The notes beneath the pieces are model-generated. The model had not been told where the DNA came from. It worked only from the letters and a program-made list of their open reading frames with translations, and ran no database searches. Shown piece by piece: positions 11,470-36,716 of a DNA stretch of 54,814 bases. The position numbers were made by a program, and so were the translations under genes. This stretch comes from a virus. Where the stretch lies: IMG/VR virus record IMGVR_UViG_3300042888_002965, positions 1-54,814 of that record; one strand, 5' to 3'. The stretch's first letter is position 1, and the number at the start of each line of letters is the position of its first letter.

Positions 11470-11487
11470 CTTAGGTATGTCTTTGTT

Positions 11488-11494
11488 ATAAATA
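11488..11494 (-). promoter_or_regulatory. Class B promoter motif
   Basis: CACTATTTATAACAAAGAC on the minus strand, exactly 18 nt before the ATG of the 284-aa gene. Confidence 0.55.
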
Positions 11495-11498
11495 GTGT

Positions 11499-13355: not shown

Positions 13356-13373
13356 TTCTGAAATGTTTTATTT

Positions 13374-13380
13374 ATAAATA
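13374..13380 (-). promoter_or_regulatory. Class B promoter motif, portal
   Basis: ACTATTTATAAATAAAAC on the minus strand, 18 nt before the ATG. This copy also contains the classical T4 late sequence TATAAATA. Confidence 0.6.
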
Positions 13381-13385
13381 GTAAC

Positions 13386-17003: not shown

Positions 17004-19460
17004 TTAAAGTGCTTCTGGTGTTTCTTCTTCAAATTCTGCTGCTGCTGCTTCTCCGCCTTCTTCTCCACCTTCAGGTGCTGGTTCTTCACCGCCTCCGGCT
17101 TCTCCACCTGGAAAGTCTCCACCACCTCCGCCTCCGGCTGCTGGTTCTGCTGCTGGTGCTCCAAACTCTTCTCCACCTGGTTCTTCACCAGTTGTAATCG
17201 GTCCGTTTTTAAGAAGATCGTTTATCTTATCTAACGCTTGTTGGTATTCTGCTAATTTATCTAAATAGTATTTTTTACCTTCAATTTGTGCTTCAAATCC
17301 TTTACCCATCCATTTAATATTGAATGATTGACCATTTTTAAGATCAACTGCGAATGTGGAAGGTTTTGGTACTACCCATCTTACATCTGTTACAAATTCT
17401 GGATATTCTTGTGTGAATAAAGATACTAATGCTTTTTTAACTGTAGGAAATTTTCCTAGTATTTCTTCTGTAGATGTTTTAAGAACTGCTCCTTCTTCCT
17501 CTTGAAGAATTTCAACGTATGCTTCTAGCATTATTTCTTTTAGTTCTTTTTTAGAGATTGCATTTTTTACGTTTCCTAATTCATCTGTAAAAGCATCCAT
17601 TAAGTCATTAAACTTAGAAGGATCTTTCATTACAGATTTAATTTTATCTCTTTTTTCAGTATCTGATAGTTTAGGGTTTCTAATCCATCCTCTAGCATCT
17701 GCAGCCTGCATTGGGTCTTTAAATAAATCTTTTATTGCTCCTTCTGACAGTTTTTTAGAAACAACATCTCTTCTGTGTTTTAGGTACTTATCTGTTTTAT
17801 CGACTTTTCCGTCATTGTTAATATCGTCATCCTCTTTTCCTACTGCATCTAATGCTTCATTTTTGTTTGACATATAAGCTGCTATGGCCATTTGCCTTTT
17901 CTTCTCTGCTGATTTTCCTTTAAATTGAGGAGCATCTGATTTTTTGAAGTCTTTTATGTATGTTTCCGGTTTAGATTTAGGCCCTAGTTTTTCTGCTACT
18001 ACACCTTCTTTAAAAGGTCTTGGACAAGGTGTACCCTTAACATGGGTATGTCCACATCTTCCGCAATATGTAGCTTTCTTTTCATTTAGTACTGCTTCTG
18101 CTACTTCACTTTCATAGTCATCATCGTAATCATCTTCTGGTGAATCACAAGCTTCTAAATCCCATTGAAGTCTTTGTTTTAACTCTCTAGCTGAGTCTCC
18201 TGGGTAGTCTTTTTTAAGCCTAGCAAGTATTTGTGGATCGTATATCATAGAGTCTGCTATATCGTAAGCAAATTCTGTACTACCTGCATCATCAATTGCT
18301 CCTTGTAAGATCTTTCTATACTGTGCTTCTGAATAAGGACGAACTCCTTGAGGTTTTATCTCTCTTGGCTTTCTTTCTCTTGGCTGTTTATCAAAGATTC
18401 CCGGGTTATCTTGTTCTATTCTCTTTCTTGTAAAAGTTCTAACTGTTCCTCCTTGGTCTCTTCCTGTAATTGTTTCGTTATCTCCTTTAATACTTGTATA
18501 GTTACCTAAACCGTTTATCTTAAATGAGATTTCATCTAATGTTACTGCTAATGTAACAGGTGCTTGGTCTTCTTCTGAGTGTAGATATCCTGCTGCTGCA
18601 TCTAGGTAATCTTCTGCTTTGGTTAGTTTAGATTGAACCCATGCATCTAATTGCTCATCGTCTCCTATTATATCCATTAACTTACTTGCATTGGATTGAA
18701 TGGATTTTAATTGTGCTTGTGCCATTGAAGATTCATCATCTGACTGTAAGTGATCATCTTCGTAGATAGGCTGTTCTGCTTGACCGAATTCGTTATCTAC
18801 TGGTTCTCCAACGTACTTTTTCATTGCATCACTTAGTTTATCTTCTAGGTCAGGAGCCGGTAGAGAGACAGTATTACCCTGTGTAATCACAAAGTCTACT
18901 AGTTCCATTGATTCGTTTCCTAGGTTTAAGATAATGGCTGTTCCTTCTGGGTTTAGGTTGAATTTAAAAGTGTCTACTCCTTTATCATTTCCATATTCAA
19001 CATGAATGTTAAACTTATCTGGTCTTAGTCCTGTTAGTTTTATTTTTACAACTTCATCTCCTTGTGCTCTAAGAACTTTTAAAAGAGATTTAGCAACTGT
19101 TTTACCAACTGCTGCTGATTCTTCTGTAGTATATTTTCTTACTTCTTCTTTTATTCTCTTAACCCCAACTGTTGCATGATCTATGTTTGGATCTGTCTTT
19201 ATGTTTTGAATAGTTTCTTCATCTGATGGATCTACTTTAAGTACTTTGTCAGGTACGTTTCCTTTATAGGAAAGTGTAGCAGGAACCGTAGTCTCTTTTA
19301 ATAAGGTTGAAAGATTGTTTTTTACCTCTTTCAATCGTTTGATTTGCTCTTGAATTACTCCTTGCTCAGATTTTGAACCTTTAGTTTTTCTTAGAGTATC
19401 AATTGCTGATTCTACTTGTAAAAGTTTTTTTGAAAGTTCTGTTTTTGTATATTTTGCCAT
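17004..19460 (-). CDS. Large modular acidic protein with Cys cluster and EF-hand-like loop
   Basis: 818 residues. The start is a coiled coil (1-55) and the middle mixed alpha/beta. A Cys cluster, [15 protein letters not shown] (C466, C469, C479), could bind zinc. The stretch [17 protein letters not shown] (about 544-560) looks like a calcium-binding EF-hand/dockerin loop. A helix [20 protein letters not shown] follows, and a low-complexity tail (about 745-818) is made of Gly, Glu, Pro and Ala. The [18 protein letters not shown] and KYLKHRRD modules recur, as far as I recall, in marine T4-like phage structural proteins. A packaged or core protein is likely. Function unknown. Confidence 0.65.
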
Positions 19461-19495
19461 CTTCTAAAGATATGAATTTATTTTCTATTAATCTA

Positions 19496-19924
19496 CTATT
19501 TGCAATGATAATTTAGGTATCTTTGTAATGCTTTTCCGTAATGAGTACCCTTATCTTCTAATGCTGAATGTGCTGTTCTTACTTTTGTACAGGACAGTTT
19601 ACCTAACCTATCTTTTAAGATACCTGGTTGAACAGGATCGTGTACTCCTTCTTCTATTTTTTTTAAATCATCGTAATATGTAGGATTCTCGTAAACATGG
19701 TCAAATGCTATTTCCATAGCAATATCCAAATCTGTTGTATGTTCTGATTCTACTTTTACCCCTTTTATTATCTGCTTTATAATCTCATCGAGAGGTAGTT
19801 TATGCATTTTAGCTAAATCTCCTACTGTAGCATACTGAGCTAGTCCTCCTGGGATGTTATTAGGAGCAGTTGTAGAGGCATCTAATGCTTCTCTAACTAG
19901 TTGTATAAGTTTAGACTTCTGCAT
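19496..19924 (-). CDS. DUF5661-like protein
   Basis: 142 residues from the preferred start MQKSKLIQLVREALDAS; an upstream in-frame ATG would add 15 residues but lies well inside the preceding gene. The core GVKVESEHTTDLDIAMEIAF followed by DHVYENPTYYDDLKKIE (about residues 55-91) matches the pattern I know as DUF5661 (VE.EHT....A.EIA.DH..E.P.YY..L). No enzymatic role is established for this family. The amphipathic start resembles MKRSE-type starts elsewhere in the genome. Overlaps the preceding gene by 14 nt. Confidence 0.65.
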   Translation of the reverse strand: MQKSKLIQLVREALDASTTAPNNIPGGLAQYATVGDLAKMHKLPLDEIIKQIIKGVKVESEHTTDLDIAMEIAFDHVYENPTYYDDLKKIEEGVHDPVQPGILKDRLGKLSCTKVRTAHSALEDKGTHYGKALQRYLNYHCK

Positions 19925-20171
19925 TATCTTCTTCAGGCATTGGTTCCCACCAGTTACAGCAGTATTCATCTGCAGGATAGGGTATTTCCTCTACCTCAGA
20001 CCACTTCTTCCAGTATTTACTTGTACATAGGTTCCCTTCTTCAGTCCAGTATTCGCAATTTGCGCACATGGAACCTCCTTTGGTAACTCTCATTCCAGCT
20101 TGATGTGATTCTGGTAAGACTAGTTCACCTGGTCCTCCGTAATTCTCGTGAAGTACTTTTAGTAGTTTCAT
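19911..20171 (-). CDS. Small four-cysteine protein
   Basis: 86 residues from MKLLKVLHENYGGPGEL. This ATG lies 1 nt after the stop of the preceding small gene, so it is preferred over a farther upstream start. Cysteines are spaced as MCANCEYW, then NLCTSKYW, then YCCNWWE (residues about 35-75). The spacing and flanking aromatics suggest a metal or iron-sulfur site, somewhat like high-potential iron-sulfur proteins, but that comparison is tentative. It lies in the run of small genes that precedes the large head protein. Confidence 0.65.
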   Translation of the reverse strand: MKLLKVLHENYGGPGELVLPESHQAGMRVTKGGSMCANCEYWTEEGNLCTSKYWKKWSEVEEIPYPADEYCCNWWEPMPEEDNAEV

Positions 20172-20172
20172 A

Positions 20173-20313
20173 CTATCCTTGTCCGTTATAAAGCTTCTTA
20201 TAGTTCTTAGAAGATTTAAGTTTTGAAGTCTTGCATTTTGCATGTACTCCCGGTCTTGCTACTTTAGGTTTATCTACCTTAGTTGTTGATGGAGCTGATT
20301 TTACTTTTGCCAT
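20173..20313 (-). CDS. Small basic protein (46 aa)
   Basis: 46 residues, starting MAKVKSAPSTTKVDKPKVAR and ending KNYKKLYNGQG, with 13 Lys or Arg. The RPGVHAK.KTSK....NYKK pattern is one I recall from short proteins of other phages. A class B motif lies 27 nt upstream, the stop is 1 nt before the next ATG, and the reading frame is fully open over its length. A nucleic-acid-binding or packaged basic protein is plausible. The 41-aa protein at 27.3 kb begins in a similar way (MAKVSHSSPQKTRT). Confidence 0.62.
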   Translation of the reverse strand: MAKVKSAPSTTKVDKPKVARPGVHAKCKTSKLKSSKNYKKLYNGQG

Positions 20314-20340
20314 AAGTCGAACACTATTTACTGTTTAAAA

Positions 20341-20347
20341 ATAAATA
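20341..20347 (-). promoter_or_regulatory. Class B promoter motif
   Basis: TACTATTTATTTTTAAACAG on the minus strand, 27 nt before the ATG of the 46-aa gene. It would serve the small genes and the 818-aa gene downstream. Confidence 0.5.
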
Positions 20348-20361
20348 GTAAGAAAAACTTA

Positions 20362-20943
20362 TTACGAATCTATATGGCTTCTGATGTGTTTTAGGTACTC
20401 CTGAAGATTCTTGTTGGTTTGTTCTTTAAATCTAGAATCATCACTATTCCAATCCTCTACATCTCCTTGTTCAGTTACAAAAGTGTTTGTTGATTCTAAA
20501 CTATCAAAGACCCATTGCTCTACATCTCTAGCAAAAGCTTTCATACTCCCCTGCATCATATTCTTTTCATACGATTCATAAAGACCTGCTTTTCTTAGTT
20601 CTGCTTCGTAGTCAATCACGCAATCAAAACACATTTTATGTATCTTATACATTTTCTGTGCTAGATGGTGTTGCATTGATCCTTTACATTTTGGACATGC
20701 TAGGGGTACTTGCATTGCTTTCTTAGCTGCATCGAGTTTGGTGATGTTTTGTCTTAGTCCATTCCTAATAGTCCAAGTTCTTCCACTCTCTTCCCAAATA
20801 TCTCCCTCTGTATATGCTACATGTGCTTTGGCATATCCTACACCGTCAACTGTCTTTGCTGAGAAGTCTTTATTGACTAGGTTTCTAGCCCTGTTAACAT
20901 CTTTTGAGGTAAATTCTTTTTTAAGTAAGCTCTCCTTTGCCAT
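20362..20943 (-). CDS. Zinc-ribbon protein
   Basis: 193 residues from MAKESLLKKEFTSKDVNRAR. The ATG at 20943 is chosen over a TTG 6 nt upstream. Two Cys pairs, CPKCKGSM and MCFDCVIDYE (about residues 83-111), with His between them, look like a zinc-binding unit. The preceding segment GDIWEESGRTWTIRNGLRQN (about 47-66) looks like a conserved beta region. The C-terminal half is helical. It overlaps the HAD gene by 23 nt. A regulatory or RNA/DNA-binding role is possible but not shown. Confidence 0.62.
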   Translation of the reverse strand: MAKESLLKKEFTSKDVNRARNLVNKDFSAKTVDGVGYAKAHVAYTEGDIWEESGRTWTIRNGLRQNITKLDAAKKAMQVPLACPKCKGSMQHHLAQKMYKIHKMCFDCVIDYEAELRKAGLYESYEKNMMQGSMKAFARDVEQWVFDSLESTNTFVTEQGDVEDWNSDDSRFKEQTNKNLQEYLKHIRSHIDS

Positions 20944-21505
20944 AACCAAGTTCTTTTAATTCATTTATAACCGATGAAATATCTCCATCTTTACATTCTA
21001 TTGATATTCCCCCTTTAGCGGCAAATGCAGCTAGGTTAGAAGGTTTATCATCTATTAATATAGAGTTTTCATTTGCAAAATCCGACTTAGCATCTCCAAA
21101 TCTAAAAATTACTTCAGGAGCAGGTACTAGATTCTCTTTTACCCACAGTCTTTTTCCAAGTCTTGAAGTATTATCTCTTGAAGGAGATGTTAAAAGCTTT
21201 GGACCATAGGGTTGAATAAAGTCCCATAATGCTTTTCCATTTGGCATCCAAGGCATTTCAGACCAGAACTCTAATCCTATATGCTGATCAATAAATTTCC
21301 AGAATTCTTCCTGTCCCTCTATCTTTTCGAAGTGCTTAGGTCTTGTTACTTGTGCAATTGTTGCTTTTGAGTAGTATTTTGGCCCTTCTTTTCTTAAAAG
21401 AGTTATAAATCTCTTTTCAAAGTCTGTTAATACTCCGTCCATATCACAGTATATCTGATATGGTAGCTTTTCAGCTCCCAGTAATGTTACGATGCTTGTT
21501 TCCAT
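20921..21505 (-). CDS. HAD-superfamily phosphatase (5'-nucleotidase-like)
   Basis: 194 residues from METSIVTLLGAEKLPYQIYC, preferred over a TTG 12 nt upstream. HAD motif I is YCDMDGVLTDF (D21, D23), motif II is in KLLTSPSRDN, and motif III/IV is SILIDDKPSNLAAF. Length and motifs resemble bacterial and phage deoxyribonucleotidase-like or polynucleotide 3'-phosphatase-like HAD enzymes. A role in nucleotide salvage or in end-processing with the neighbouring nucleotidyltransferases can be imagined. The substrate cannot be told from sequence alone. Overlaps the metallopeptidase gene by 19 nt. Confidence 0.8.
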   Translation of the reverse strand: METSIVTLLGAEKLPYQIYCDMDGVLTDFEKRFITLLRKEGPKYYSKATIAQVTRPKHFEKIEGQEEFWKFIDQHIGLEFWSEMPWMPNGKALWDFIQPYGPKLLTSPSRDNTSRLGKRLWVKENLVPAPEVIFRFGDAKSDFANENSILIDDKPSNLAAFAAKGGISIECKDGDISSVINELKELGYGKGELT

Positions 21506-21861
21506 ATTGTCTCCCAATTTTCTTCTTCGTTATATGCTGCTACTTCGTATGGATGATTTGAATAATCGTATCCCATTCTATAATACCTGGTCATCCAAGA
21601 TGGTGACTGTAGGTAGTGTTGATATTCGTGAATAACCGTTCGTATTAGTTCCTCTAAGCTTCCTATGTTATTGTAGTATATTGTTATCTCATTGAATAAG
21701 TAACAATACTCTCCTTTTATGTCGTCTATAATATCTTTGCTTAGATATATGTGTGGAGAGGTTTGCTGATGTTTTGACAAACCATAGTGGTTCTCTACTT
21801 CAACTATGTACTTCTCTACATACTCAACGATCTGCTTCTTTGTAACCTTTGTTTTTTTCAT
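21487..21861 (-). CDS. Zincin-like metallopeptidase (stand-alone)
   Basis: 124 residues. Contains IRTVIHEYQHYLQS with the HExxH zinc motif (H78, E79, H82) and, 24 residues later, NHPYEVAAY with E106 as a candidate third zinc ligand. This is a compact gluzincin-like layout. No signal peptide or membrane segment, so the target is probably cytoplasmic. The same kind of motif occurs at the C-terminus of the adjacent 695-aa fusion. It may be a host-takeover or maturation peptidase, or an inactive relic. Starts 14 nt after the fusion gene. Confidence 0.7.
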   Translation of the reverse strand: MKKTKVTKKQIVEYVEKYIVEVENHYGLSKHQQTSPHIYLSKDIIDDIKGEYCYLFNEITIYYNNIGSLEELIRTVIHEYQHYLQSPSWMTRYYRMGYDYSNHPYEVAAYNEEENWETIWKQAS

Positions 21862-21875
21862 AACCTTTTTTATTT

Positions 21876-23963
21876 TTATTTACTTTTTACTCCGTCTTCC
21901 CAGTTTCTGAAGGTTATATTACCTCTTAGGTAAGCTTCTTTTTCTATTTCCTGTAGGTTTGAGTCTTCATTTGTATTGGTAGTAGCTGCTAATCCTTCAA
22001 GTCTTCCTTCAATATTCTGAATATGATGTATCATTTCATGTGTAAAGGATCTACAAACATCTTTAGGATGTCTTCCAAGTACATATAGAATTACTTCCTT
22101 ATTATTTGGATTGTAATAAGCTGTTCTACCGAAGAAGTTATTGGCTTGATCTTCATCGTACCTTACTTTTACCTCTGGTAGTGGTTGTATATTCATACCT
22201 TCATCAAGCATATACTCTAAAATAGATGCTATGTATGGAGTGTAGTTAAATTTTTCTTGCTCTACTGACTCCGGTAGGTGTTTTTGATAAGGGGTTTGAT
22301 CAAAGCTTACATCTGAGTATGTCTTAACGTAAATGTCAATTCTATCCTGATTAAATACTACTGTAAATTTATCTGAATCTACTGTTTGTCTTAGTTGATT
22401 GAATAGGTCTAGTAAGTCTGCTCTATCTTTAGACGGAATAGCTCCTGATGCAGCTATTGGTGTTCCTGATGATCCTTCTTTTACTACTTTTTTCTTAGTT
22501 TCTTTTGGAAAAAAGCTTTCAAATACATTATCAACAGCAGTTAGCATTTTATCTTCGATTGAATCCTCTTTTTGTGGTGCTACAATATCTACGATTGCTT
22601 GTTTATCTTCTTTAGATATTACTTTTGGAATCCATTTACCTGATAATAAGAACTCTTCTGACTTTCTAATATCAGTTGCTGAGAATTTACTGTCTTCTTT
22701 GTCTACAATTATAGGAAGTTCTTTTACTTCTACGTTTTTATAGTTACCTTTTACTTTACCTTTTTCTATTCCTGAGAATTTACCCATTTCATCAGCCATA
22801 GCTCCTGTAATAATTCTTGTTACTTTGTCTTGATTTGCATCAATCCATTCGTATATGTCTAATACAGGTGTTACTCTACTGATCTGAATCTCTACTGGTA
22901 CATTTATGTATTTTGCATAGATCTCCCAAATTGCTTTTGATTGTTCTGCTGTAATTTTTACTCCTTCTCTAATTTTAGGTCCAATAAAGATTACAATCTT
23001 ATCTGCTTGAGTGGATAAAAACTTAGCATTCTCAAAGTGAGCAAGGTGCGGTGGTTTAAATCCTCCTGCATATAAAGCTACTACTTCTGATCCGTCATCT
23101 AAAGCTTCAGCAAGTGTTTGTGCTACTTTTTCAAGTGCATCTTCTTTACCTTTTCCTTTAGCTGTTCCTACTTCTCCTGATTTAACAGTTACCATTGATT
23201 TGAATATCCCTGCTATTCTATTTTTAGATCTAGCATTTGTAAGTCTTCTTGCAATATCATCTAATAGGTCTTCAAAAGACCCGTCAATGCTAAAATTCTT
23301 AAATAAAATTTTAATGGTTCCCCAACTTGTTGTTGACCAAACTTCTTCTCTCGCTATCTCTCTAAAGCCTTCTAGTTTTACTTTTCTTAAGGACAGTTTT
23401 ACTGATGATAAATTGAATTCGTATTCTTCTCCTTTTTCAAGTTTAGGTATATTTGAAATACCCATTCTTCTAAATACTTCTTCAGGATTTTCTTCCAATA
23501 GAATTACTTTTGCTAGTCCTATTAGTAGTCCTTGCTTTTCAGCCGGTAGGTCTAAGAATGATCCTTTAAAAGCATGCTCTTCTTCTGTAAGAGAAATGAT
23601 GTTATCCACTTGAATAAACTCATTTTCTTTTCCTACAATTGGATAGAGTACTGAGATTAGTTCTCCTGAGTTATAATATCTCCTTCCTGTGTACTTTTCT
23701 GATTTAAAAGGTACAATTACGTCTTGCGGTAGAGCTAAAGCTGCATCGATAAGTCTTTGTTTTACTTCTCTCTTATCGTCTCCTTCAAACCATACAATGA
23801 TATCTAAGTCTCCAAAGTCAGCTTTAGAACCTGCCTTAACAGATCCTGATAGAGAAGCTTTCTTAAAGCCTGGTATTTTACTTAGAACTTCTTCTACGTA
23901 TTTATTGAATGTATTATGTACATCTCCTCTTTCTATTCTATTTCCTCCTGCTACTCCACTCAT
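21876..23963 (-). CDS. Tri-domain Pol-beta nucleotidyltransferase / HIGH-type nucleotidyltransferase / zincin fusion
   Basis: 695 residues, apparently three enzyme-like domains. Residues 1-125: a Pol-beta-type nucleotidyltransferase with LSGSVKAGSKADFGDLDIIV (G40 S41, D52, D54) and a third acid in FIQVD (D120). Residues about 295-440: a HIGH-superfamily nucleotidyltransferase, ALYAGGFKPPHLAHF (H306, H309) and the C-terminal motif FSATDIRKS (428-434), as in NMN or phosphopantetheine adenylyltransferases. Residues about 540-695: a zincin with RSFTHEMIHHIQN (H642, E643, H646) and downstream Glu. The ATG overlaps the upstream nucleotidyltransferase stop (TAATG). Phage proteins with the GGFKPPH domain are known to me; substrates are not. 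Confidence 0.8.
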   Translation of the reverse strand: MSGVAGGNRIERGDVHNTFNKYVEEVLSKIPGFKKASLSGSVKAGSKADFGDLDIIVWFEGDDKREVKQRLIDAALALPQDVIVPFKSEKYTGRRYYNSGELISVLYPIVGKENEFIQVDNIISLTEEEHAFKGSFLDLPAEKQGLLIGLAKVILLEENPEEVFRRMGISNIPKLEKGEEYEFNLSSVKLSLRKVKLEGFREIAREEVWSTTSWGTIKILFKNFSIDGSFEDLLDDIARRLTNARSKNRIAGIFKSMVTVKSGEVGTAKGKGKEDALEKVAQTLAEALDDGSEVVALYAGGFKPPHLAHFENAKFLSTQADKIVIFIGPKIREGVKITAEQSKAIWEIYAKYINVPVEIQISRVTPVLDIYEWIDANQDKVTRIITGAMADEMGKFSGIEKGKVKGNYKNVEVKELPIIVDKEDSKFSATDIRKSEEFLLSGKWIPKVISKEDKQAIVDIVAPQKEDSIEDKMLTAVDNVFESFFPKETKKKVVKEGSSGTPIAASGAIPSKDRADLLDLFNQLRQTVDSDKFTVVFNQDRIDIYVKTYSDVSFDQTPYQKHLPESVEQEKFNYTPYIASILEYMLDEGMNIQPLPEVKVRYDEDQANNFFGRTAYYNPNNKEVILYVLGRHPKDVCRSFTHEMIHHIQNIEGRLEGLAATTNTNEDSNLQEIEKEAYLRGNITFRNWEDGVKSK

Positions 23964-24871
23964 TATGCTCTGTATTGTATTAAGTTTGAATTATCTGGTA
24001 AGAATTTACCTTTTAGTCCTAATCTTTCTTGATTTTCTATCCAATATGACTGTAAATCTTCCGGTATATCTGCTCTTGTTGAATCTAATATCTTAAGATA
24101 AGTATCATAAACAGCATGCAAATCTTGTTCAGATAAGCCTGCTTCTAGTGTTTCTATCAACTTAAAATAGTCTCCTATTGTATCTCGATCTAAATTTAAA
24201 CCATATAACTGGTTTAGTAGGTCGATTGCTTGTTGAGGTGTATTGGCTACTATCTCTTGTGTTTCTTTACTCTTTACTCCATAGTTGTGAGAGAATGTAT
24301 ACCCTTTGTGAGAGAATAAAGATACAAGTAACTGTGTTCTATGAAGACCTTTTACGTTTCCTGAGTAAGTGGCTGAGTGATAAGCAAATGAAAGCCAATC
24401 TACATCTCCTACATTTACATCTATTTGAACGTTTTGACCTACTACTTCGTTATTCTCATCATACTGAGGGAATAAAAGAAATAAAGCTCCTGCTCCTGAT
24501 CCTTTTACATCTGCTATAATCTCTGTATCAGCCTCTAACACTTTCTGTGCTACTGCTACAATTACAGCTCTTTTCATCAACTGATCATCAGAAGAGGTTC
24601 TAGCTCTTTTCTTAAATCCTTCAAATAAAGCTTGAACGTGTTTCTCATCCAGACCCCAATCATTTATATCATCAAAGGATGACCCGGCAAGTGCTAGGTC
24701 AATATCCCCTGAATAATCTTTTTTCCCTACAGATCCTAGAGTTTTCATCTCTCTAAAGAATGGTTCTGCTTTTGGAAATATTGTTTTGAACTGCTTAAAG
24801 AACTCTAATAGAGTTGGTTTAATATGCTCTTTTTTTATTGGTGCTGTACTATCGAATACGTTTCCTCCCAT
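23963..24871 (-). CDS. Pol-beta-type nucleotidyltransferase
   Basis: 302 residues. TLGSVGKKDYSGDIDLAL (G46 S47, D56, D58) and the third acidic position in VQIDVNVGDVDW (D151) form the catalytic set of the Pol-beta/CCA nucleotidyltransferase superfamily. The N-terminal start is NVFDSTAPIKKEHIKPTLLE. A C-terminal helical half (about 205-302) may bind the substrate. First gene of an early-type unit with a class A promoter, directly coupled to the fusion gene. It could transfer a nucleotide to RNA or protein; the acceptor is unknown. Confidence 0.75.
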   Translation of the reverse strand: MGGNVFDSTAPIKKEHIKPTLLEFFKQFKTIFPKAEPFFREMKTLGSVGKKDYSGDIDLALAGSSFDDINDWGLDEKHVQALFEGFKKRARTSSDDQLMKRAVIVAVAQKVLEADTEIIADVKGSGAGALFLLFPQYDENNEVVGQNVQIDVNVGDVDWLSFAYHSATYSGNVKGLHRTQLLVSLFSHKGYTFSHNYGVKSKETQEIVANTPQQAIDLLNQLYGLNLDRDTIGDYFKLIETLEAGLSEQDLHAVYDTYLKILDSTRADIPEDLQSYWIENQERLGLKGKFLPDNSNLIQYRA

Positions 24872-24888
24872 GTTACTTTTTATTTACC

Positions 24889-24919
24889 TAAAGATACGCA
24901 CAATATTTCTATTATGCAA
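24889..24919 (-). promoter_or_regulatory. Class A promoter, nucleotidyltransferase unit
   Basis: Minus strand: TTG (24917-24919), exactly 20 bp, then TATCTTTA (24889-24896) followed by GG. It lies 17 nt before the ATG at 24871. The layout matches the Bacteroidota -33/-7 promoter (TTTG, TAnnTTTG). Confidence 0.75.
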
Positions 24920-24931
24920 CTATTATATTAA

Positions 24932-24938
24932 ATAAATA
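24932..24938 (-). promoter_or_regulatory. Possible class B promoter motif
   Basis: TACTATTTATTTAATATAAT on the minus strand, 60 nt before the ATG at 24871 and just upstream of the class A -33 element. It may give a second, late start for the same unit. Confidence 0.4.
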
Positions 24939-24941
24939 GTA

Positions 24942-25724
24942 CTAAAGTTTGATAGTGGTTGGATATGAGGTAAACTTAGGCTCTGTTGTTGGATGCTCTA
25001 TCTCGTATAGTTTATAGATCAATTTGAATAATTCAAAGTTCTTTTCTATATCATCTATTACTTTTAATTCCCATCCTTTACCCTGTATCTTTTTACCGGC
25101 TTTATCAGCTCCTCTTGTTGATGCTTTCAACCAAAGAATAGCTGTTCTATCAATCTTAATACCTTTTACTTCTTCAATTGATTTAGCATAAGCTGCCAAT
25201 TGTAAGTCATATGATTTATGTAGGTGATTTGATGTTTTGAAGTCAATAAGCCAATTCTCTCCGTTCATCGATACAACTATATCAGCTGTTCCGGCATACT
25301 TGTGAGTATCTGAGTAAGTAAATTCTTCTGTGAAGATTAGTACAGGCTTTGCTACTTCCCAAAACTCTTTGAACTTCATAATCATACTCCATACTAGTTC
25401 ATTGTATCGGGCATTACCGTAATCATCCATCCATTGGATTTCTTTACCTTCTAATAACTCTTCGATTGCATTGTGAGTTTGGGTACCTTCATCTCCGGCT
25501 CTTCTCATTATAATGTCTGAGTTGTGACCTACATCTTTCAACCAAGATTCAAAGAACTTATTCTTTGGCATGTATTGTAAAATTGATGTAACTGAAGGGT
25601 AGTATACTCCTTCTGATCTTTGATAAACCCTTCTGTCTAAGAAGTTAATCTGTTTAAGTTCAGGTTTAAAATCTAACCTCTTCTTAGCATGTTCTGACAA
25701 AACATTCTGTCCTTTTTGTATCAT
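24942..25724 (-). CDS. RecB/Cas4-type PD-(D/E)XK exonuclease
   Basis: 260 residues from MIQKGQNVLSEHAKKRLDFK. This ATG lies 1 nt after the primase stop, so it is chosen over an upstream start buried in the primase gene. Motifs of the RecB-like nuclease family: a His in EGTQTHNAIEELLEG (H84), KYAGTADIVV (D148), the core ENWLIDFKTS (D161, K163) and QLAAYA (Q175). Likely role: DNA end processing in replication or recombination, or degradation of host DNA. Co-transcribed with primase from a class A promoter. Confidence 0.82.
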   Translation of the reverse strand: MIQKGQNVLSEHAKKRLDFKPELKQINFLDRRVYQRSEGVYYPSVTSILQYMPKNKFFESWLKDVGHNSDIIMRRAGDEGTQTHNAIEELLEGKEIQWMDDYGNARYNELVWSMIMKFKEFWEVAKPVLIFTEEFTYSDTHKYAGTADIVVSMNGENWLIDFKTSNHLHKSYDLQLAAYAKSIEEVKGIKIDRTAILWLKASTRGADKAGKKIQGKGWELKVIDDIEKNFELFKLIYKLYEIEHPTTEPKFTSYPTTIKL

Positions 25725-25725
25725 A

Positions 25726-26646
25726 TTATGATAGTTTGTAGCGGAGTAACTTTCCGAAGTCCATTTCCTCTGCCTGTTGTACATAACGAGTGAAGCTTGC
25801 AAAGCCCATCTCGCTTGGATCCTTATCTTGCATATCTACTAGATATACCTTCTTTCCCATATTCAGAAACTGTTCTGTGTATGAAAGTGCCTTTTTAAAT
25901 GCATCCCTGTCTAGGGCTACGTATATGTCTTCTACCTGACTTGATACTATCTTTTTTATCAAAGATTTTGACAAAGACTTACCAAGTATTGGTACTGCGT
26001 TTCTTTTTACTGCTATTGCATCAAATACCCCTTCTACAAGTATAATGGGCTGTGCCCAATTGATTAAGTTCTCAAACCCTATTATATCCTTAGAGCACTC
26101 TGGATTTCTGTATTTATGGTAAGCATCTTCAAATGTTCTTGCTACAAAGAAGTTTAACTGGTTATTCTCATTATATGATGGTACAATCACTCTTCCTGTG
26201 TATTCTCCTGAAGTACAGTAGCCAATATTGTATTTTAGGAAGTCTCTGTCGGTAAAACCTCTTTTATACAGGTACCTTCTTACTTTATTTGCTATAATAG
26301 AAGTGGTCGATGCTGTATAAAGAGCTTGAAACTCTTTAGGTAATTCTACTACAGAAGCAGGGGCATAACCTATTTCATCACCTTTTCTTACGTATTTAAG
26401 TATTTCGTATGCTTGTTCGGCCGGTATCTGTAGCTGTTTGAGTAAAGACTTGATTGTACGTCCTTTAAAGCCACATACCCAACATTCGAAAGGATTCTCA
26501 CCTTTTTCATTGGTATGAAGGTTTACCTCTAGTTTTGGCTTATGATGATTGCATTTAGGGCAGGTAAAAGCATAGTTCTCCCGTGCTCTCTTGTGAGATT
26601 TACCTAAGACATTCTCTATAAAACCTAATAATATACTACTACTCAT
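25726..26646 (-). CDS. gp61: DNA primase (gp61/DnaG-like)
   Basis: 306 residues (T4 gp61 is 342). The N-terminal zinc-binding domain has CPKCN (C29, C32) and CWVCGFKG (C55, C58). The TOPRIM catalytic domain has IILVEGVFDA (E205), IYVALDRDA (D246, D248) and a KDPSE motif near residue 278. It lacks a DnaB-type helicase domain, so it would act with a separate helicase, which is not in this window. Class A promoter 24 nt upstream; the stop is 1 nt from the nuclease start. Confidence 0.93.
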   Translation of the reverse strand: MSSSILLGFIENVLGKSHKRARENYAFTCPKCNHHKPKLEVNLHTNEKGENPFECWVCGFKGRTIKSLLKQLQIPAEQAYEILKYVRKGDEIGYAPASVVELPKEFQALYTASTTSIIANKVRRYLYKRGFTDRDFLKYNIGYCTSGEYTGRVIVPSYNENNQLNFFVARTFEDAYHKYRNPECSKDIIGFENLINWAQPIILVEGVFDAIAVKRNAVPILGKSLSKSLIKKIVSSQVEDIYVALDRDAFKKALSYTEQFLNMGKKVYLVDMQDKDPSEMGFASFTRYVQQAEEMDFGKLLRYKLS

Positions 26647-26670
26647 ACCTGTACATAACTGATTGACATC

Positions 26671-26701
26671 TTAAGATACGAAAAAAGACTTGAATAAACA
26701 A
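26671..26701 (-). promoter_or_regulatory. Class A promoter, primase-nuclease unit
   Basis: Minus strand: TTG (26699-26701), 20 bp, then TATCTTAA (26671-26678), 24 nt before the primase ATG. The -33 part overlaps the terminator hairpin at 26681-26705. Confidence 0.65.
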
Positions 26702-26705
26702 GCCT
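26681..26705 (-). terminator. Intrinsic terminator after the 194-aa gene
   Basis: On the minus strand AGGCTTG / CAAGTCT with one G-T pair and a 6-nt loop, then six T. It lies 23 nt after the stop at 26729. Confidence 0.82.
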
Positions 26706-26728
26706 TTCTTTTATTATTTTAGTATTCC

Positions 26729-27313
26729 CTATACTAGTAAACTTCTGAGAGCAGGATATGCGTTTACTATTGCTTCCTCTGATTTTGCTACTGTCTTAAG
26801 GGATGATAATGCTCCTTGGAACCATTCTGCATGTGATAGCTTATCAACTGCTGCTACACCGTACCCGGCTGCCATACTTCCTACTACAATTGCATATACA
26901 CTCTTTGTTAACAGGTCTAGTGTTTTTGGATCTTTTACAAAGAAGCTTAAAACTCTTCTAATAGGTGCTTGAAAGTTCTTTTCATTATCGTGAGCCCAGT
27001 GGTGTATCTTTTCTGCAATATCTTCTCCTTTTTTATAGTTTAGAAGTTTAAATAGTTTTGCTGAGTATTTTGATATAAAACCTACTACTGTGTTTGCGGT
27101 TAATATAGCAGCTACTGTAGCAGTTACTATTGCTTCATCTAACTGTTTTGGATCTTTACTTTTTAGCTCTGTTCCAATTGCTGCTGCAATAGCATTAGCT
27201 GCTTGTGCAAATTCAGCATCAAAAGCTGCTTCTTCGCTATCTACTTCTTCTAACCTAGAGTTTGCAGTTAGTTTATTCTCTACTAAGAATTTCTTTAAAT
27301 CAAAATTATCCAT
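26729..27313 (-). CDS. Putative internal protein with hydrophobic segments and FDL-type N-terminus
   Basis: 194 residues. The N-terminus MDNFDLKKFLVENKLTANSR nearly repeats that of the 288-aa head protein, including an LxE site suited to the prohead protease. Two hydrophobic stretches follow, TATVAAILTANTVVGFI (about 64-80) and VYAIVVGSMAAGYGVAAV (about 138-155), which could cross or insert into a membrane. I suspect a capsid-packaged protein that is injected with DNA, but no family is recognised. Ends before a terminator; its ATG lies inside the preceding 41-aa gene. Confidence 0.6.
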   Translation of the reverse strand: MDNFDLKKFLVENKLTANSRLEEVDSEEAAFDAEFAQAANAIAAAIGTELKSKDPKQLDEAIVTATVAAILTANTVVGFISKYSAKLFKLLNYKKGEDIAEKIHHWAHDNEKNFQAPIRRVLSFFVKDPKTLDLLTKSVYAIVVGSMAAGYGVAAVDKLSHAEWFQGALSSLKTVAKSEEAIVNAYPALRSLLV

Positions 27314-27431
27314 TCTGTAATTTTTTAAGTATTAATTCATTTTGCTTTATTAAGTTAAATGTTTTTAATACTGATTTTCTGCTCTTATTGGTCCTTGTCT
27401 TTTGAGGAGAGCTGTGTGATACTTTTGCCAT
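27306..27431 (-). CDS. Small basic protein (41 aa)
   Basis: 41 residues, MAKVSHSSPQKTRTNKSRKS at the start, strongly basic, with a helical second half ending KKLQNG. Its ATG overlaps the stop of the kinase-like gene (TAATG) and its stop overlaps the next ATG by 8 nt, so it fills the only gap in this run of genes. The start resembles that of the 46-aa protein at 20.2 kb. Probably nucleic-acid-binding or packaged. No family is recognised. Confidence 0.58.
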   Translation of the reverse strand: MAKVSHSSPQKTRTNKSRKSVLKTFNLIKQNELILKKLQNG

Positions 27432-27868
27432 TATACGTCTATTACTTTAATTCTACCTCTTTTATCTTGCATTAGGTTATCCATTTTAATTGAACCACCT
27501 GGTCCCTCTAAGTCTGGATATATTCCTAGTAGGTCTGCTTCTTCCATTATATCGTCAATTGGAACATCCTTTTCATTTCCTGTAAAAGGCTGTAGATCTT
27601 CCATTGTAATGATTCCTAGTTTTGGATTTCTAACCTCTACATCGTAAATGTATACAAAATATTTGGTTCTTTGTCCTTTTATTTGCTGTGCATCTTCTAG
27701 TTCCTCTGAATCAGTAGTAACTTTTTTTACTTTATCTCCTACCATAAAGACTACTCCGTAATCACCTTCTCCTAAATACTCTCCTCCTTGGTCAATGATA
27801 TCATTTACAAGTTCTTGGTATTCTTGAGTTGGATCTAAGATCTCTTTTAATAAGGAAAACAGTTTCAT
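27431..27868 (-). CDS. Truncated protein-kinase-like domain
   Basis: 145 residues. A Gly-rich loop LGEGDYGVVF (about 32-41), the strand VKKVTTD with candidate Lys47-49, and at the very end IKMDNLMQDKRGRIKVIDV. The last segment fits a kinase-fold catalytic loop Asn (N131) and DFG-type Asp (D144). The protein ends one residue after that Asp, so the large helical lobe is absent. It may be a minimal pseudokinase or small-molecule phosphotransferase fold. Overlaps both neighbours as TAATG. Confidence 0.6.
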   Translation of the reverse strand: MKLFSLLKEILDPTQEYQELVNDIIDQGGEYLGEGDYGVVFMVGDKVKKVTTDSEELEDAQQIKGQRTKYFVYIYDVEVRNPKLGIITMEDLQPFTGNEKDVPIDDIMEEADLLGIYPDLEGPGGSIKMDNLMQDKRGRIKVIDV

Positions 27869-28263
27869 TATTTTAATTTAGCAGAGAATGCTCTGGCAAG
27901 TCTAGGGGCATTAGCTTTAACTTTAGCTATAGCATCTTCTTCTGAAGTAGCTTGTACTGTTTCGTCCCAATCTATATCATCACCACGTCTATCCATTGTG
28001 TAGTACTCTACTCTATAAGTCTTTTCTTCACCTTCTCCTTCGTAAACAGGTTTTTCACCTCTAGAAATTCTAGCTACGTTATCTGGGTTTGCTTTGTCTA
28101 AGATTGCATTACCTCTTACTGGATCTCCTTCAGGACGTCCTTTTGCTATTGCTGTAAGAATGTTTCTGAAGTCATCTGTAGTTCCTCCCTTAGTTTGTCC
28201 TACCTGTGGAGAATATCCTTTCATTGCTTCAAGGACTATTTCTCTTAATTCTGATCTTTTCAT
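27868..28263 (-). CDS. Hypothetical protein with MKRSE-type start
   Basis: 131 residues. It starts MKRSELREIVLEAMKGYSPQ, an amphipathic helix of the kind also found in the 115-aa head-module protein, with a VLE that could be a prohead-protease site. A central Gly/Asp-rich linker follows. A C-terminal alpha/beta part (YRVEYYTMDRRGDDIDWDET, then a helix SEEDAIAKVKANAPRLARAF) looks like a small folded domain. Function unknown. Confidence 0.6.
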   Translation of the reverse strand: MKRSELREIVLEAMKGYSPQVGQTKGGTTDDFRNILTAIAKGRPEGDPVRGNAILDKANPDNVARISRGEKPVYEGEGEEKTYRVEYYTMDRRGDDIDWDETVQATSEEDAIAKVKANAPRLARAFSAKLK

Positions 28264-28266
28264 TAT

Positions 28267-28356
28267 TTATTTTTTCTTAAGTTCTATTGAAAATAGTATT
28301 ATACTAAATATAAATATTAGCGTTATTAGGTAATAGCCTATTGGTCCTCCGTCCAT
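28267..28356 (-). CDS. 29-aa single-span membrane protein
   Basis: 29 residues: MDGGPIGYYLITLIFIFSII then LFSIELKKK. It consists of one hydrophobic span with a basic C-terminal tail. The ATG overlaps the stop of the cupin-like gene in the TAATG arrangement used throughout this genome, and the stop lies 3 nt before the next ATG, which is good evidence that it is translated. Role unknown; a small holin-like or regulatory membrane peptide is one option. Confidence 0.55.
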   Translation of the reverse strand: MDGGPIGYYLITLIFIFSIILFSIELKKK

Positions 28357-28616
28357 TATAATTCTAATATTCTGATGTCTAAATTTCCTGTTCCTTTTAT
28401 TAATCTATGGTAAGTGTCTTTTGGAATAAAGACTGTATCCTGAAGCTGTTGCGGTATTGAATCTTCAAATTGGAATTGCCAATCTGTAGTACCTACTACT
28501 TCCACTTGTCTATCGTTTCTATCTCTATGCCAAACTAATTCCTCTTCCTCTACATCCTGTGTAAACTTTCTATAGATGAAGTCAAATGTCTTTAACTCAT
28601 AGTAAGGTCTATCCAT
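28356..28616 (-). CDS. Small cupin-like protein
   Basis: 86 residues, beta-rich. ELVWHRDRNDRQVEVV near residues 26-41, DWQFQFEDSIPQQL (45-58), then TVFIPKDTYHRLIKGTG (61-77) follow the cupin pattern: two His-containing strands flanking a P-x(n)-H turn. Phage-encoded short cupin-like proteins with WHRD and HR elements are familiar to me from T4-like phages, without an assigned function. A single-domain binding protein or a metal enzyme is possible. Confidence 0.55.
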   Translation of the reverse strand: MDRPYYELKTFDFIYRKFTQDVEEEELVWHRDRNDRQVEVVGTTDWQFQFEDSIPQQLQDTVFIPKDTYHRLIKGTGNLDIRILEL

Positions 28617-28617
28617 T

Positions 28618-29556
28618 TTACCAGTATCCGCTAAAGTTTCTACTACCTCCTAATGATTTCCAATACCTTCCGATATTACAAGCCCAGTACCCCGGTTTTG
28701 TTCTATCTTTTTTCTTATCACATTGATGACGAGCGGCAAAAGAACTTCTTGCACCTGGTTCATCTATCTTTACATTTAATCCTGTTGTTCCTCCGAACTG
28801 TACTTTTTTAACTTTTTTAGTTTTCGGATCTTTAACATATACTACAAACTTCTTAGAACCTCCTCTTTTAGGTTTTCCTAATTGTACATCTTTCCCGTGG
28901 TATTCTGCTTCTACTATCTTTTCAAGATTAAAATAATCCCAAAAGTCAAATATTCTAGCAAACTGATCATAGTTGTCCGGAAATACTAATGTCTGTCCTG
29001 AATAAGAAGCTGGTTTTAGTACTACTTTATTATCTGTAATATCTATTACTCTTAGCTTATTATTGTCTTTGTCAATAACAGTCATATTCCTTTTAATATT
29101 TCCTCCGTATTCTCCTGCTCTAGGAAGTGCTGGGTTAAGCTGCTCTGTAAGTTTTTTCCAATTCTCAAGAGCCTTCATATCATATACTCCTTTTTCATTA
29201 TCATATCCGCAATTGTGGCATAATGCTGAATGAGTATCTTCAGGTGTTACCTCCCAGTGGTGGTCACATTTCTTACAAGCAATCTCTTCTCCTTCTTCTA
29301 CCATTGGTAAGTCTAAAGGTACTTTTTGTCCTTCATACTCTCCATATTCACCTATATTTGTCTCTTCTAGAAGTAATCTATCCTCTTCACATAAGTCTAA
29401 ATAACCGTCTCTGTGAAGTGTTCTTGCTTCAGTAAACAATTGTATAAAGGCATTGGAAGAATAACGGTAGATATTCTCAGATAAGGGTAATCCATGCTTT
29501 AAATGGTAATTTAAGCCTGGTGTTGTATCAACTAATAGGTTAAGTAGTTTTATCAT
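28618..29556 (-). CDS. Zinc-ribbon protein with RARH-type C-terminal domain
   Basis: 312 residues. A zinc ribbon is visible as CKKCDHHWEVTP...CHNCGYDN (about residues 93-119). The C-terminal domain (about 235-312) reads KFVVYVKDPKTKKVKKVQFG, then SSFAARHQCDKKKDRTKPGY and WACNIGRYWKSLGG. I recognise this end as a module found at the C-terminus of various T4-like marine phage proteins (VYVK...V.FG...RARH.CD....YW.C). Its function is not established. Overlaps the GIY-YIG gene by 17 nt. Confidence 0.65.
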   Translation of the reverse strand: MIKLLNLLVDTTPGLNYHLKHGLPLSENIYRYSSNAFIQLFTEARTLHRDGYLDLCEEDRLLLEETNIGEYGEYEGQKVPLDLPMVEEGEEIACKKCDHHWEVTPEDTHSALCHNCGYDNEKGVYDMKALENWKKLTEQLNPALPRAGEYGGNIKRNMTVIDKDNNKLRVIDITDNKVVLKPASYSGQTLVFPDNYDQFARIFDFWDYFNLEKIVEAEYHGKDVQLGKPKRGGSKKFVVYVKDPKTKKVKKVQFGGTTGLNVKIDEPGARSSFAARHQCDKKKDRTKPGYWACNIGRYWKSLGGSRNFSGYW

Positions 29557-29989
29557 AAAAATCTTTCTTAAAAAAGCGTCCTGATATGTTATCGTTAAAA
29601 TAAATAGAACCTGGCTCTATGACCCCTTTCATATAAAGATACTTATCCTCATAGTAGGTCAGCTGTTTCTTAGTCGGTACAAAGATAAGAATTTCTCTTG
29701 TGAATTCCGACTGTTTCTTTTCTTTTATTAACTGTTTAATTTCTGGATGAGAACCGTGATAGGTTTTCCAATCCGTTTCCTTTATTACAGTCTTCTTTTT
29801 AGAAGCTCTTTTATCGGTAATTAAAGCTAATTCTTTTTTTCCTAATACTTTTTTTGTAACAGAAATTAATTGTTTTCTTCCTAGATATTTTCTACCACTT
29901 GGAAGATGTGTTACTTCATAGATAAACCCAAAGCTTCCTTCGGGCATATCTGTAAGTTCTTTTATTTCTTTATTTTGATATAACCACAT
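29540..29989 (-). CDS. GIY-YIG-family endonuclease-like protein
   Basis: 149 residues. FGFIYEVTHLPSGRKYLGRK (about 20-39) is the GIY...YIG-type element: F-I-Y, then K-Y-L-G with R38. An insert of about 40 residues leads to DWKTYHGSHPEIKQLI, followed by FTREIL and YYEDKYLYMKG with a candidate catalytic Glu (E114), then IYFNDNISGRFF. This arrangement resembles stand-alone Seg-type nucleases of T-even phages. Function as a mobile (homing) nuclease or as host-DNA nicking enzyme is possible. Confidence 0.75.
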   Translation of the reverse strand: MWLYQNKEIKELTDMPEGSFGFIYEVTHLPSGRKYLGRKQLISVTKKVLGKKELALITDKRASKKKTVIKETDWKTYHGSHPEIKQLIKEKKQSEFTREILIFVPTKKQLTYYEDKYLYMKGVIEPGSIYFNDNISGRFFKKDFYDKTT

Positions 29990-30002
29990 TTTTTATTTTG
30001 TT

Positions 30003-34184: not shown

Positions 34185-34194
34185 GTTTTATTTT

Positions 34195-35016: not shown

Positions 35017-35019
35017 TCA

Positions 35020-36012: not shown

Positions 36013-36018
36013 ATCTTA

Positions 36019-36675: not shown

Positions 36676-36693
36676 TTTACTTTGTTTTTATTA

Positions 36694-36700
36694 ATAAATA
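36694..36700 (-). promoter_or_regulatory. Class B promoter motif, fibre-connector unit
   Basis: ATATATTTATTAATAAAAAC on the minus strand, exactly 18 nt before the ATG at 36675. Confidence 0.58.
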
Positions 36701-36716
36701 TATCGTGTTATTGTTT

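What the first reader, a model, noticed from the sequence alone, without database searches (positions are those of the whole stretch)
21876..23963. Three-enzyme fusion: Pol-beta nucleotidyltransferase, HIGH-type nucleotidyltransferase and zincin
One 695-aa reading frame holds GS..DLD plus a third Asp (Pol-beta type), then GGFKPPHLAH with SATDIR (NMNAT/PPAT-like), then HEMIHH (zincin). All key residues are present in each domain, so none is an obvious relic. Two different nucleotidyl-transfer chemistries joined to a peptidase suggest a pathway, such as making and attaching a nucleotide-type modification and cutting a target protein, or NAD-related counter-defence. Neither is shown.
Basis: partly seen in the sequence, partly recalled or inferred. 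Interest (0 to 1): 0.78.

Follow-up and report, generated by a model that had tools for sequence, protein, structure and literature searches.

The report
Phage multi-enzyme protein, likely cut apart
One gene of a bacterial virus really does join two different nucleotide-transferring enzymes and a metal-dependent protease, and its joints look like cutting sites of the virus's own head-assembly protease, which suggests (but does not prove) a bundle of enzymes carried in the virus head and released separately.

Summary
Window 21876-23963 (minus strand) encodes an intact 695-aa protein with three folded domains: Pol-beta/family X-like nucleotidyltransferase (1-257), HIGH adenylyltransferase (292-466; nearest folds PPAT and NMNAT) and zincin (511-694). 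Catalytic residues are conserved. It is no frameshift: cultured Flavobacterium phage immuto has the same fusion (86% identical) plus a fourth domain with another HEXXH motif. The parts are not a fixed pathway. HIGH+zincin is the core; the Pol-beta domain with its Pol-beta-like upstream gene alternates with a Zeta_toxin-type kinase gene (distinct genes: 13 of 13 against 19 of 22). New here: the joints are enriched in [LIV]-x-E|[GANS], close to the T4 prohead-protease site L/I-X-E (62 found, 19.8 in shuffles). The window encodes such a protease. Best reading: a T4-type polyvalent protein, packaged, cut in the prohead into separate enzymes and injected. Packaging, cutting and substrates are inferred; the protein has no N-terminal leader, and with the strict L/I rule the excess is weak at two of three joints. 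NAD counter-defence has little support (partner enzyme in 1 of 10 records). New variant of a known kind.

The parts
21876..23963 (-). 695-aa three-domain protein (whole ORF)
23193..23963 (-). Pol-beta / family X-like nucleotidyltransferase domain, residues 1-257; G40, D52, D54, D120 invariant in 13 of 13
23103..23114 (-). candidate prohead-protease site 1, LAE|A (residues 284-287), between Pol-beta and HIGH domains
   Evidence: cleavage inferred
22566..23090 (-). HIGH-family adenylyltransferase domain, residues 292-466 (GGFKPPHLAH, SATDIR)
22473..22484 (-). candidate prohead-protease site 2, VKE|G (residues 494-497), in the disordered linker between HIGH and zincin
   Evidence: cleavage inferred
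21882..22433 (-). zincin domain, residues 511-694 (HEMIHH; E674/E676 third-ligand candidates)
21487..21861 (-). 124-aa gene with HEYQH motif (HExxH in 12 of 12 homologous ORFs); not found next to genes that carry the fused fourth domain
   Evidence: zincin by motif only
23963..24871 (-). 302-aa second Pol-beta-like protein; its last base overlaps the start of the 695-aa gene; upstream of 37 of 37 Pol-beta-bearing homologues with upstream DNA
   Evidence: relation to the Pol-beta domain weak (hhalign E 0.0014, probability 17%)
24872..24941 (-). intergenic gap with TACTATTTAT, a motif shared with gaps before many structural genes
   Evidence: promoter role inferred
20921..21517 (-). NT5C-type HAD nucleotidase; first or second gene downstream in 19 of 23 loci looked at; the start of a similar domain is seen by eye at the C-terminus of L069
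8747..9325 (-). prohead core protein serine protease (Peptidase_S77, gp21 type)
   Evidence: E 2.3e-34, 119.1 bits against a cut-off of 27

Best explanation
A T4-type polyvalent payload protein. Shown by sequence and model: three enzyme folds with conserved active sites, modular shuffling, [LIV]xE|small motifs at the joints, and a gp21-type protease gene in the same window. Inferred: it is made with the structural proteins, enters the prohead, and is cut there by that protease after Glu286 and Glu496 into a nucleotidyltransferase, a HIGH adenylyltransferase and a zincin, which are injected with the DNA. In the new host the Pol-beta enzyme would attach a nucleotide to a host molecule (protein or RNA), the zincin would cut host proteins, and the HIGH enzyme would adenylylate a small phosphate-bearing substrate. 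Targets are unknown.
For: Joint motif, linkers more than 75% alike removed, hit anywhere in the linker: [LIV]xE[GANS] Pol-beta|HIGH 6 of 8 (shuffles 1.9; 2 of 1000 reach it), HIGH|zincin 25 of 28 (7.9; 0 of 1000), zincin|fourth domain 6 of 12 (1.3; 0 of 1000); strict [LI]xE at Pol-beta|HIGH 8 of 8 (3.4; 0 of 1000). Density 63 in 4668 aa outside the domains against 56 in 17014 aa of domains, 34 distinct of 74 proteins. Specificity: [LIV]xE[GANS] 62 against 19.8 shuffled; of 11 other residues tried at the Glu position the highest ratio is 1.8 (Ala). Published T4 gp21 site L/I-X-E (PMC9026906, passages). Prohead protease Peptidase_S77 in the window and in 9 of 10 related records. The stand-alone zincin of L051/L052 (233 aa) starts with a leader ending ITE|A, alignable by eye to the internal linker. 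The kinases of the alternative slot have [LI]xE just before the P-loop in 31 of 31, as in MIKLTDLILE|A. Leader-like [LI]xE[AGNS] in the first 40 aa of 29 of 174 immuto ORFs against 16.6 +- 3.8 shuffled (largest of 500 shuffles 28), MCP and prohead protease among them (names). The 302-aa/695-aa gene pair lies behind a TATTTAT gap motif seen before 20 of 31 gap-preceded ORFs of the structural half of immuto against 11 of 59 elsewhere. Portal and terminase within 11 kb.
Against: No virion proteome was found. The protein has no N-terminal leader: no [LI]xE[AGNS] in its first 40 residues, and 27 of 34 relatives that start with HIGH begin directly at that domain. With the strict T4 rule [LI]xE the excess is weak at HIGH|zincin (22 of 28 against 17.3; 49 of 1000 shuffles reach it) and zincin|fourth domain (6 of 12 against 3.1; 41 of 1000); [LIV]xE alone at Pol-beta|HIGH is 8 of 8 against 5.0 (22 of 1000); the four leaders before N-terminal HIGH domains have [LI]xE in 4 of 4 (88 of 1000) but [LIV]xE[GANS] in 0 of 4. 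Site 2 here has V, not L/I. Six of 12 distinct zincin|fourth-domain joints read MAE|G or MSE|G and fail the pattern; L041, L060 and L067 lack it at HIGH|zincin, and in L021 it stands at another place. In the kinase leaders the next residue is often not small (A or S in 12 of 31). Over the whole protein the motif is not in excess (5 against 2.9, p about 0.17). Homologous linkers are not independent events and the motif was chosen after seeing the sequences. The gap motif also precedes some early genes, and the T4 late motif is not clearly above chance (15 against 10.65; 8 of 100 shuffles reach it).
Confidence: 0.45

Rival explanations
1. Polyvalent protein processed by its own zincin, or injected uncut and processed in the host; the joint motif is only a domain-boundary habit.
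For: The 2017 polyvalent-protein paper proposes this for zincins (PMC5512222, passages). Zincin active site intact in 25 of 25.
Against: The Pol-beta|HIGH joint and the leaders of separate kinase genes carry a similar [LI]xE motif although no zincin is attached to the kinases; the motif fits the prohead protease better.
Confidence: 0.17
2. Cytosolic enzyme set for nucleotide or NAD metabolism or NAD+ reconstitution during infection, not packaged.
For: HIGH domain resembles NMNAT/PPAT; an NT5C nucleotidase gene is first or second downstream in 19 of 23 loci, and the start of such a domain ends L069 (by eye); NAPRTase in L017's record.
Against: NAPRTase in 1 of 10; NCBIfam cut-offs missed widely; domains swap independently; a protease has no obvious role in such a pathway.
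Confidence: 0.16
3. RNA/tRNA repair or tailing complex: the Pol-beta domain is a template-free RNA nucleotidyltransferase countering host tRNA cleavage, HIGH and zincin being accessory.
For: Foldseek's top rows are family X polymerases; two Pol-beta-like genes in tandem.
Against: No RNA ligase is annotated in immuto, though one nearby gene bears an RNA-modification name (gp189, TiaS); the second Pol-beta-like gene's slot is taken by a Zeta_toxin-type kinase in relatives.
Confidence: 0.12

Closest known systems
Polyvalent proteins of phages and conjugative elements (Iyer et al. 2017, PMC5512222; passages read)
   Same: Disparate enzyme domains in one chain, zincin as hub, Pol-beta nucleotidyltransferases included, encoded by portal-terminase phages, predicted to be injected.
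   Different: Terms for HIGH-family enzymes (cytidylyltransferase, adenylyltransferase, HIGH superfamily) do not occur in its main text; its Pol-beta domains are minimal, mainly firmicute and usually ArdC-N-fused; in the passages seen, processing is credited to zincins or assemblin-like peptidases, not to a T4-type prohead protease cutting between domains.
Immuto gp183 (QQO91862.1), annotated nicotinamide mononucleotide adenylyltransferase NadR
   Same: Orthologue, 85.7% identical over residues 1-694.
   Different: 907 aa, with a fourth domain bearing HEIEHLTH; its annotation names one domain only.
T4 internal head proteins and Alt with gp21 processing (PMC9026906, passages)
   Same: Short leader, L/I-X-E cut site, gp21-family protease in the genome, enzyme carried in the head (Alt).
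   Different: In the passages seen, T4 cuts remove terminal propeptides or break up core proteins; here the cuts would separate enzymes. Packaging not shown here, and this protein has no N-terminal leader.
Cyanophage and other T4-like multi-domain 'cytitidyltransferase' proteins
   Same: HIGH-type fold inside large multi-domain phage proteins; Foldseek hits in BFVD, the best an unnamed 657-aa phage protein, E 6.9e-50.
   Different: No match of the 695-aa protein to phrog_764; members of A3 match phrog_395 cytidyltransferase in 8 of 30.

Membership tests
Polyvalent proteins | two or more disparate enzyme domains in one polypeptide | tested here: met
Polyvalent proteins | zincin-like metallopeptidase hub domain | tested here: met
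   not obligatory in the 2017 set (about 36% have one to five)
Polyvalent proteins | portal-terminase phage | tested here: met
   portal 11499-13355, terminase 13386-14960
Polyvalent proteins | packaged and injected with the DNA | not testable with these tools
   no virion proteome of immuto seen in the listings
T4-type prohead-protease substrate | L/I-X-E motif at the expected position | tested here: inconclusive
   in this protein site 1 is LAE, site 2 is VKE (V, not L/I); family statistics strong for [LIV]xE[GANS], mixed for strict [LI]xE
T4-type prohead-protease substrate | N-terminal capsid-targeting-type leader | tested here: not met
   no [LI]xE[AGNS] in the first 40 residues
T4-type prohead-protease substrate | gp21-family protease in the same phage | tested here: met
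   window 8747-9325 is Peptidase_S77, E 2.3e-34; 9 of 10 related records
NMN adenylyltransferase (NadR, NadM, NMNAT) | HIGH fold and motif | tested here: met
NMN adenylyltransferase (NadR, NadM, NMNAT) | curated family score cut-off | tested here: not met
   19.0 against 127 bits; Pfam CTP_transf_like also under its cut-off, 18.4 against 21
NadR | fused ribosylnicotinamide P-loop kinase domain | tested here: not met
   no kinase family in the 695-aa protein
Pol-beta superfamily | G[S], GD(L/I)D and a third acidic residue in a Pol-beta fold | tested here: met
   Pfam NTP_transf_2 only at 13.5 bits, under the cut-off of 21
DNA polymerase family X proper | templated polymerase with DNA-binding subdomains | tested here: inconclusive
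   Foldseek 1.8e-6 but TM 0.49 by target length and rmsd 7.0 for the top row
Zincin metallopeptidase | HEXXH plus downstream Glu in zincin fold | tested here: met
   25 of 25; 48 of 50 VIA rows zincins by name, Z 6.3-8.6 only; Foldseek alone best 0.035

The most novel reading that the evidence does not exclude
A DNA phage uses its capsid as a polyprotein-processing chamber: exchangeable enzyme modules (two kinds of nucleotidyltransferase, Zeta_toxin-type kinase, HIGH adenylyltransferase, several zincins, HAD phosphatase, an uncharacterised insert), many preceded by their own L/I/V-x-E site, are packaged as one chain or as separate leader-bearing proteins, cut by the prohead protease and injected as a cocktail. 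The T4 leader and the joint of a polyprotein would be one and the same evolutionary part.
Probability: 0.38. Interest if true: 0.85.

Novelty: new variant of a known kind. Interest (0 to 1): 0.62.

Why it matters
If true, it links two known ideas (T4 internal proteins and polyvalent proteins) with a simple mechanism, gives a sequence rule for finding injected enzymes in T4-like phages of this group, and makes several untested enzyme families testable in a cultured phage. It also shows that the NadR/NMNAT annotation of immuto gp183 names one domain of four.

Tried and rejected
NAD+ salvage operon: NAPRTase in 1 of 10 records. T4 late promoter TATAAATA: not clearly above chance. Whole-protein excess of the cut motif: not significant; only the joint-specific tests are. 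PHROG match of this protein: none useful. PDB sequence search of the zincin: nothing relevant. PDB sequence search of Pol-beta: weak only (the best row is a nucleotidyltransferase at 0.02; DrrA at 0.53 is not used). Foldseek of the zincin alone: no hit at or under 0.001 (best IrrE 0.035). Genome scan: 3 loci, all in MAG contigs, one titled Winogradskyella; not pursued. Sinorhizobium and Methylophilales phage hits concern a C-terminal domain of L074 only; the Prevotella Lak phage hits are weak HIGH-domain matches. A published virion proteome of immuto: none seen in the listings (PMC7077304 on LMO8 phages was seen as listing and start of abstract only). A HIGH-plus-zincin phage fusion in print; none seen in their listings, but one search listed 15 of 184 papers and 8 of 10, and apart from passages of the papers cited here these were not read, so this is weak.

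The 75 loci come from the best 80 of 252 relatives; counts by ORF include near-identical contigs. Only four immuto records among 50,697 phage records match the whole protein.

Full report
WHAT WAS CHECKED. The reading frame at 21876-23963 (minus strand, 695 aa) is real and intact. The window is a 54.8-kb virus record. Its closest named relative is in Flavobacterium phage immuto, 85.7% identical over residues 1-694, in four records of three isolates. A frameshift artefact is excluded because the same fusion recurs in those isolates and in many metagenomic contigs.

DOMAINS. AlphaFold with 38 sequences gives mean pLDDT 81.7 (pTM 0.45) with three ordered domains and a disordered linker at 480-507. 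The Pol-beta part matches family X DNA polymerases (Foldseek 1.8e-6; the table prints no query ranges, so its place at residues 1-257 is my reading from motif and length). Residues 292-466 match phosphopantetheine adenylyltransferase (VIA Z 14.3) and, only 1.0 lower, a nicotinamide mononucleotide adenylyltransferase (Z 13.3); a profile reaches the PDB at 2.1e-6 and Pfam CTP_transf_like is found in 20 of 30 members at E 0.1, under the curated cut-off for this protein. The substrate is therefore open. The zincin was modelled alone: 48 of the 50 listed VIA rows are proteins I read as zincins (best Wss1 Z 8.6; IrrE, ArdC, ACE among them), the other two YbeY and AQ_1354; Foldseek alone gives nothing at or under 0.001. 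Catalytic residues are conserved: 13 of 13 for Pol-beta G40 and the three Asp, 30 of 30 for the second His, Lys and Arg of HIGH (first His 25 of 30), 25 of 25 for the zincin.

MODULARITY. HMMs for four modules (P Pol-beta, H HIGH, Z zincin, Y fourth domain with HExxH in 36 of 36 sequences) over the ORFs of 76 loci (75 and immuto L001) gave 77 ORFs: P-H-Z-Y 26, H-Z 26, P-H-Z 9, H-Z-Y 8, P 2, P-H 2, Z-Y 2, Z 2; near-identical contigs and cut ORFs are included. L024 and L035 carry an insert between H and Z, L048 reaches 1496 aa with a HAD-like insert, and L069 ends, by eye, in the start of an NT5C-like HAD domain before its contig ends. The gene's place is conserved: among 23 loci looked at, primase and exonuclease lie upstream in 22 (the other contig starts too late), and NT5C is the next gene in 15 and the one after the 124-aa gene in 4.

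TWO SLOTS THAT ALTERNATE. Upstream: 37 of 37 Pol-beta-starting genes with upstream DNA follow the 302-aa Pol-beta-like gene, while 31 of 35 without Pol-beta follow a P-loop kinase gene; after removing alike proteins, 13 of 13 and 19 of 22. Three of these kinases were scanned and match Pfam Zeta_toxin above its cut-off. Downstream: of 34 genes with Y fused and downstream DNA none has the 124-aa HEXXH gene next; of 8 Pol-beta genes without Y all 8 have it; of 27 non-Pol-beta genes without Y 4 have it. Swapping of unlike enzymes in fixed slots is easier to explain by a payload than by a pathway.

THE JOINTS. After removing linkers more than 75% alike, and counting a hit anywhere in the linker, [LIV]xE[GANS] is found at Pol-beta|HIGH in 6 of 8 (1.9 in shuffles; 2 of 1000 reach it), at HIGH|zincin in 25 of 28 (7.9; 0 of 1000; mean linker 59 aa) and at zincin|Y in 6 of 12 (1.3; 0 of 1000). 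The strict T4 form [LI]xE gives 8 of 8 (3.4; 0 of 1000), 22 of 28 (17.3; 49 of 1000) and 6 of 12 (3.1; 41 of 1000): strong at the first joint, weak at the others. Four short leaders before N-terminal HIGH domains have [LI]xE in 4 of 4 (88 of 1000) but not followed by a small residue (0 of 4) (all). Across 34 distinct proteins the density is 63 in 4668 aa outside domains against 56 in 17014 aa of domains. The excess depends on Glu: 62 against 19.8 shuffled; of 11 other residues at that position Ala reaches 1.8-fold, Asp and Ser 1.3-fold. Moving the Glu, a charged or small residue in the first position, or a charged residue after the Glu removes it; Met in the first position keeps it (8 against 2.8). 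This fits the T4 gp21 rule L/I-X-E in kind (PMC9026906, passages read), with V and perhaps M added. The zincin that stands alone (L051/L052) begins with a leader ending ITE|A that matches the internal linker by eye. All 31 kinases of the alternative slot have [LI]xE just before the P-loop, with A or S next in 12. Leaders with [LI]xE[AGNS] are in excess over immuto ORFs (29 of 174, 16.6 expected). The window's own 8747-9325 is a Peptidase_S77 prohead protease (2.3e-34), and 9 of 10 related records have one; the tenth is a 94-kb record.

EXPRESSION. The gap before the 302-aa gene holds TACTATTTAT; TATTTAT[AT] lies before 20 of 31 gap-preceded ORFs of the structural half of immuto and 11 of 59 elsewhere (p 2e-5), and before portal and terminase in the window. 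That it is a late promoter is inference; the T4 late motif proper is not clearly above chance.

READING. The best-supported account is a T4-type polyvalent protein that is packaged, cut at its joints in the prohead and injected. Shown: folds, conserved active sites, shuffling, the joint motif and the protease gene. Inferred: packaging, cutting, injection, targets. Against it: no leader at the protein's own N-terminus, and 27 of 34 H-first relatives begin directly at the HIGH domain; valine at site 2; weak strict-rule statistics at two joints; half of the distinct zincin|Y joints outside the pattern; no excess over the whole protein; shared ancestry of the linkers; a motif chosen after looking; no proteome. 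I put it at 0.45.

KNOWN OR NEW. Polyvalent proteins are known, with zincins as hub and Pol-beta members (PMC5512222, passages read); its main text has no hit for cytidylyltransferase, adenylyltransferase or HIGH superfamily. SPN3US work shows prohead-protease removal of propeptides from head proteins (PMC10052503, passages), not separation of enzymes in the passages seen. The NAD-in-viruses and jumbo-phage papers (PMC9503650, PMC7824862, passages) describe phage NadM/NadR with NadV; NAPRTase is in 1 of 10 records here. Hence: new variant of a known kind.

Noticed in passing
window 15041-15907 and 26729-27313; immuto 1803, 103806, 117631, 118632: Several genes share a near-identical N-terminal leader of the type NFDLKKFLVENKLT, with one or two [LI]xE sites: a possible head-targeting tag of this phage group.
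   Followed up: partly
window 17004-19460: 818-aa protein with an EF-hand-like stretch ([19 protein letters not shown]) that matches the start of phrog_764 cytidyltransferase and several unknown PHROGs.
   Followed up: no
window gaps, for example 13356-13385, 11470-11498, 24872-24941: TATTTAT[AT] motif on the coding strand before many structural genes, near the reverse complement of the T4 late motif.
   Followed up: partly
L041, L044, L047, L054 and others, directly upstream of the HIGH-zincin gene: P-loop kinases (three scanned: Pfam Zeta_toxin) with a short leader, often ending LILE.
   Followed up: partly
L048 residues about 920-1130: 1496-aa relative with a further HEXXH motif (HEGLH) and a HAD-like insert preceded by LEEG; no Pfam hit for the HEGLH region.
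   Followed up: no
L121 4540-6348 (Sinorhizobium phage phiM12): 602-aa protein whose C-terminal domain is shared with L074 and Methylophilales phage Melnitz; its N-terminus looks like a degenerate HIGH domain by eye.
   Followed up: no
immuto 18607-37015 (L115): Annotated 7-deazaguanine DNA modification genes (QueC, QueD, QueE, FolE, DpdA, QueF) in the sister phage.
   Followed up: no
L025, contig of 150740 bases: A much longer metagenomic contig holds a 100% identical 695-aa protein; probably the same phage, more complete.
   Followed up: partly
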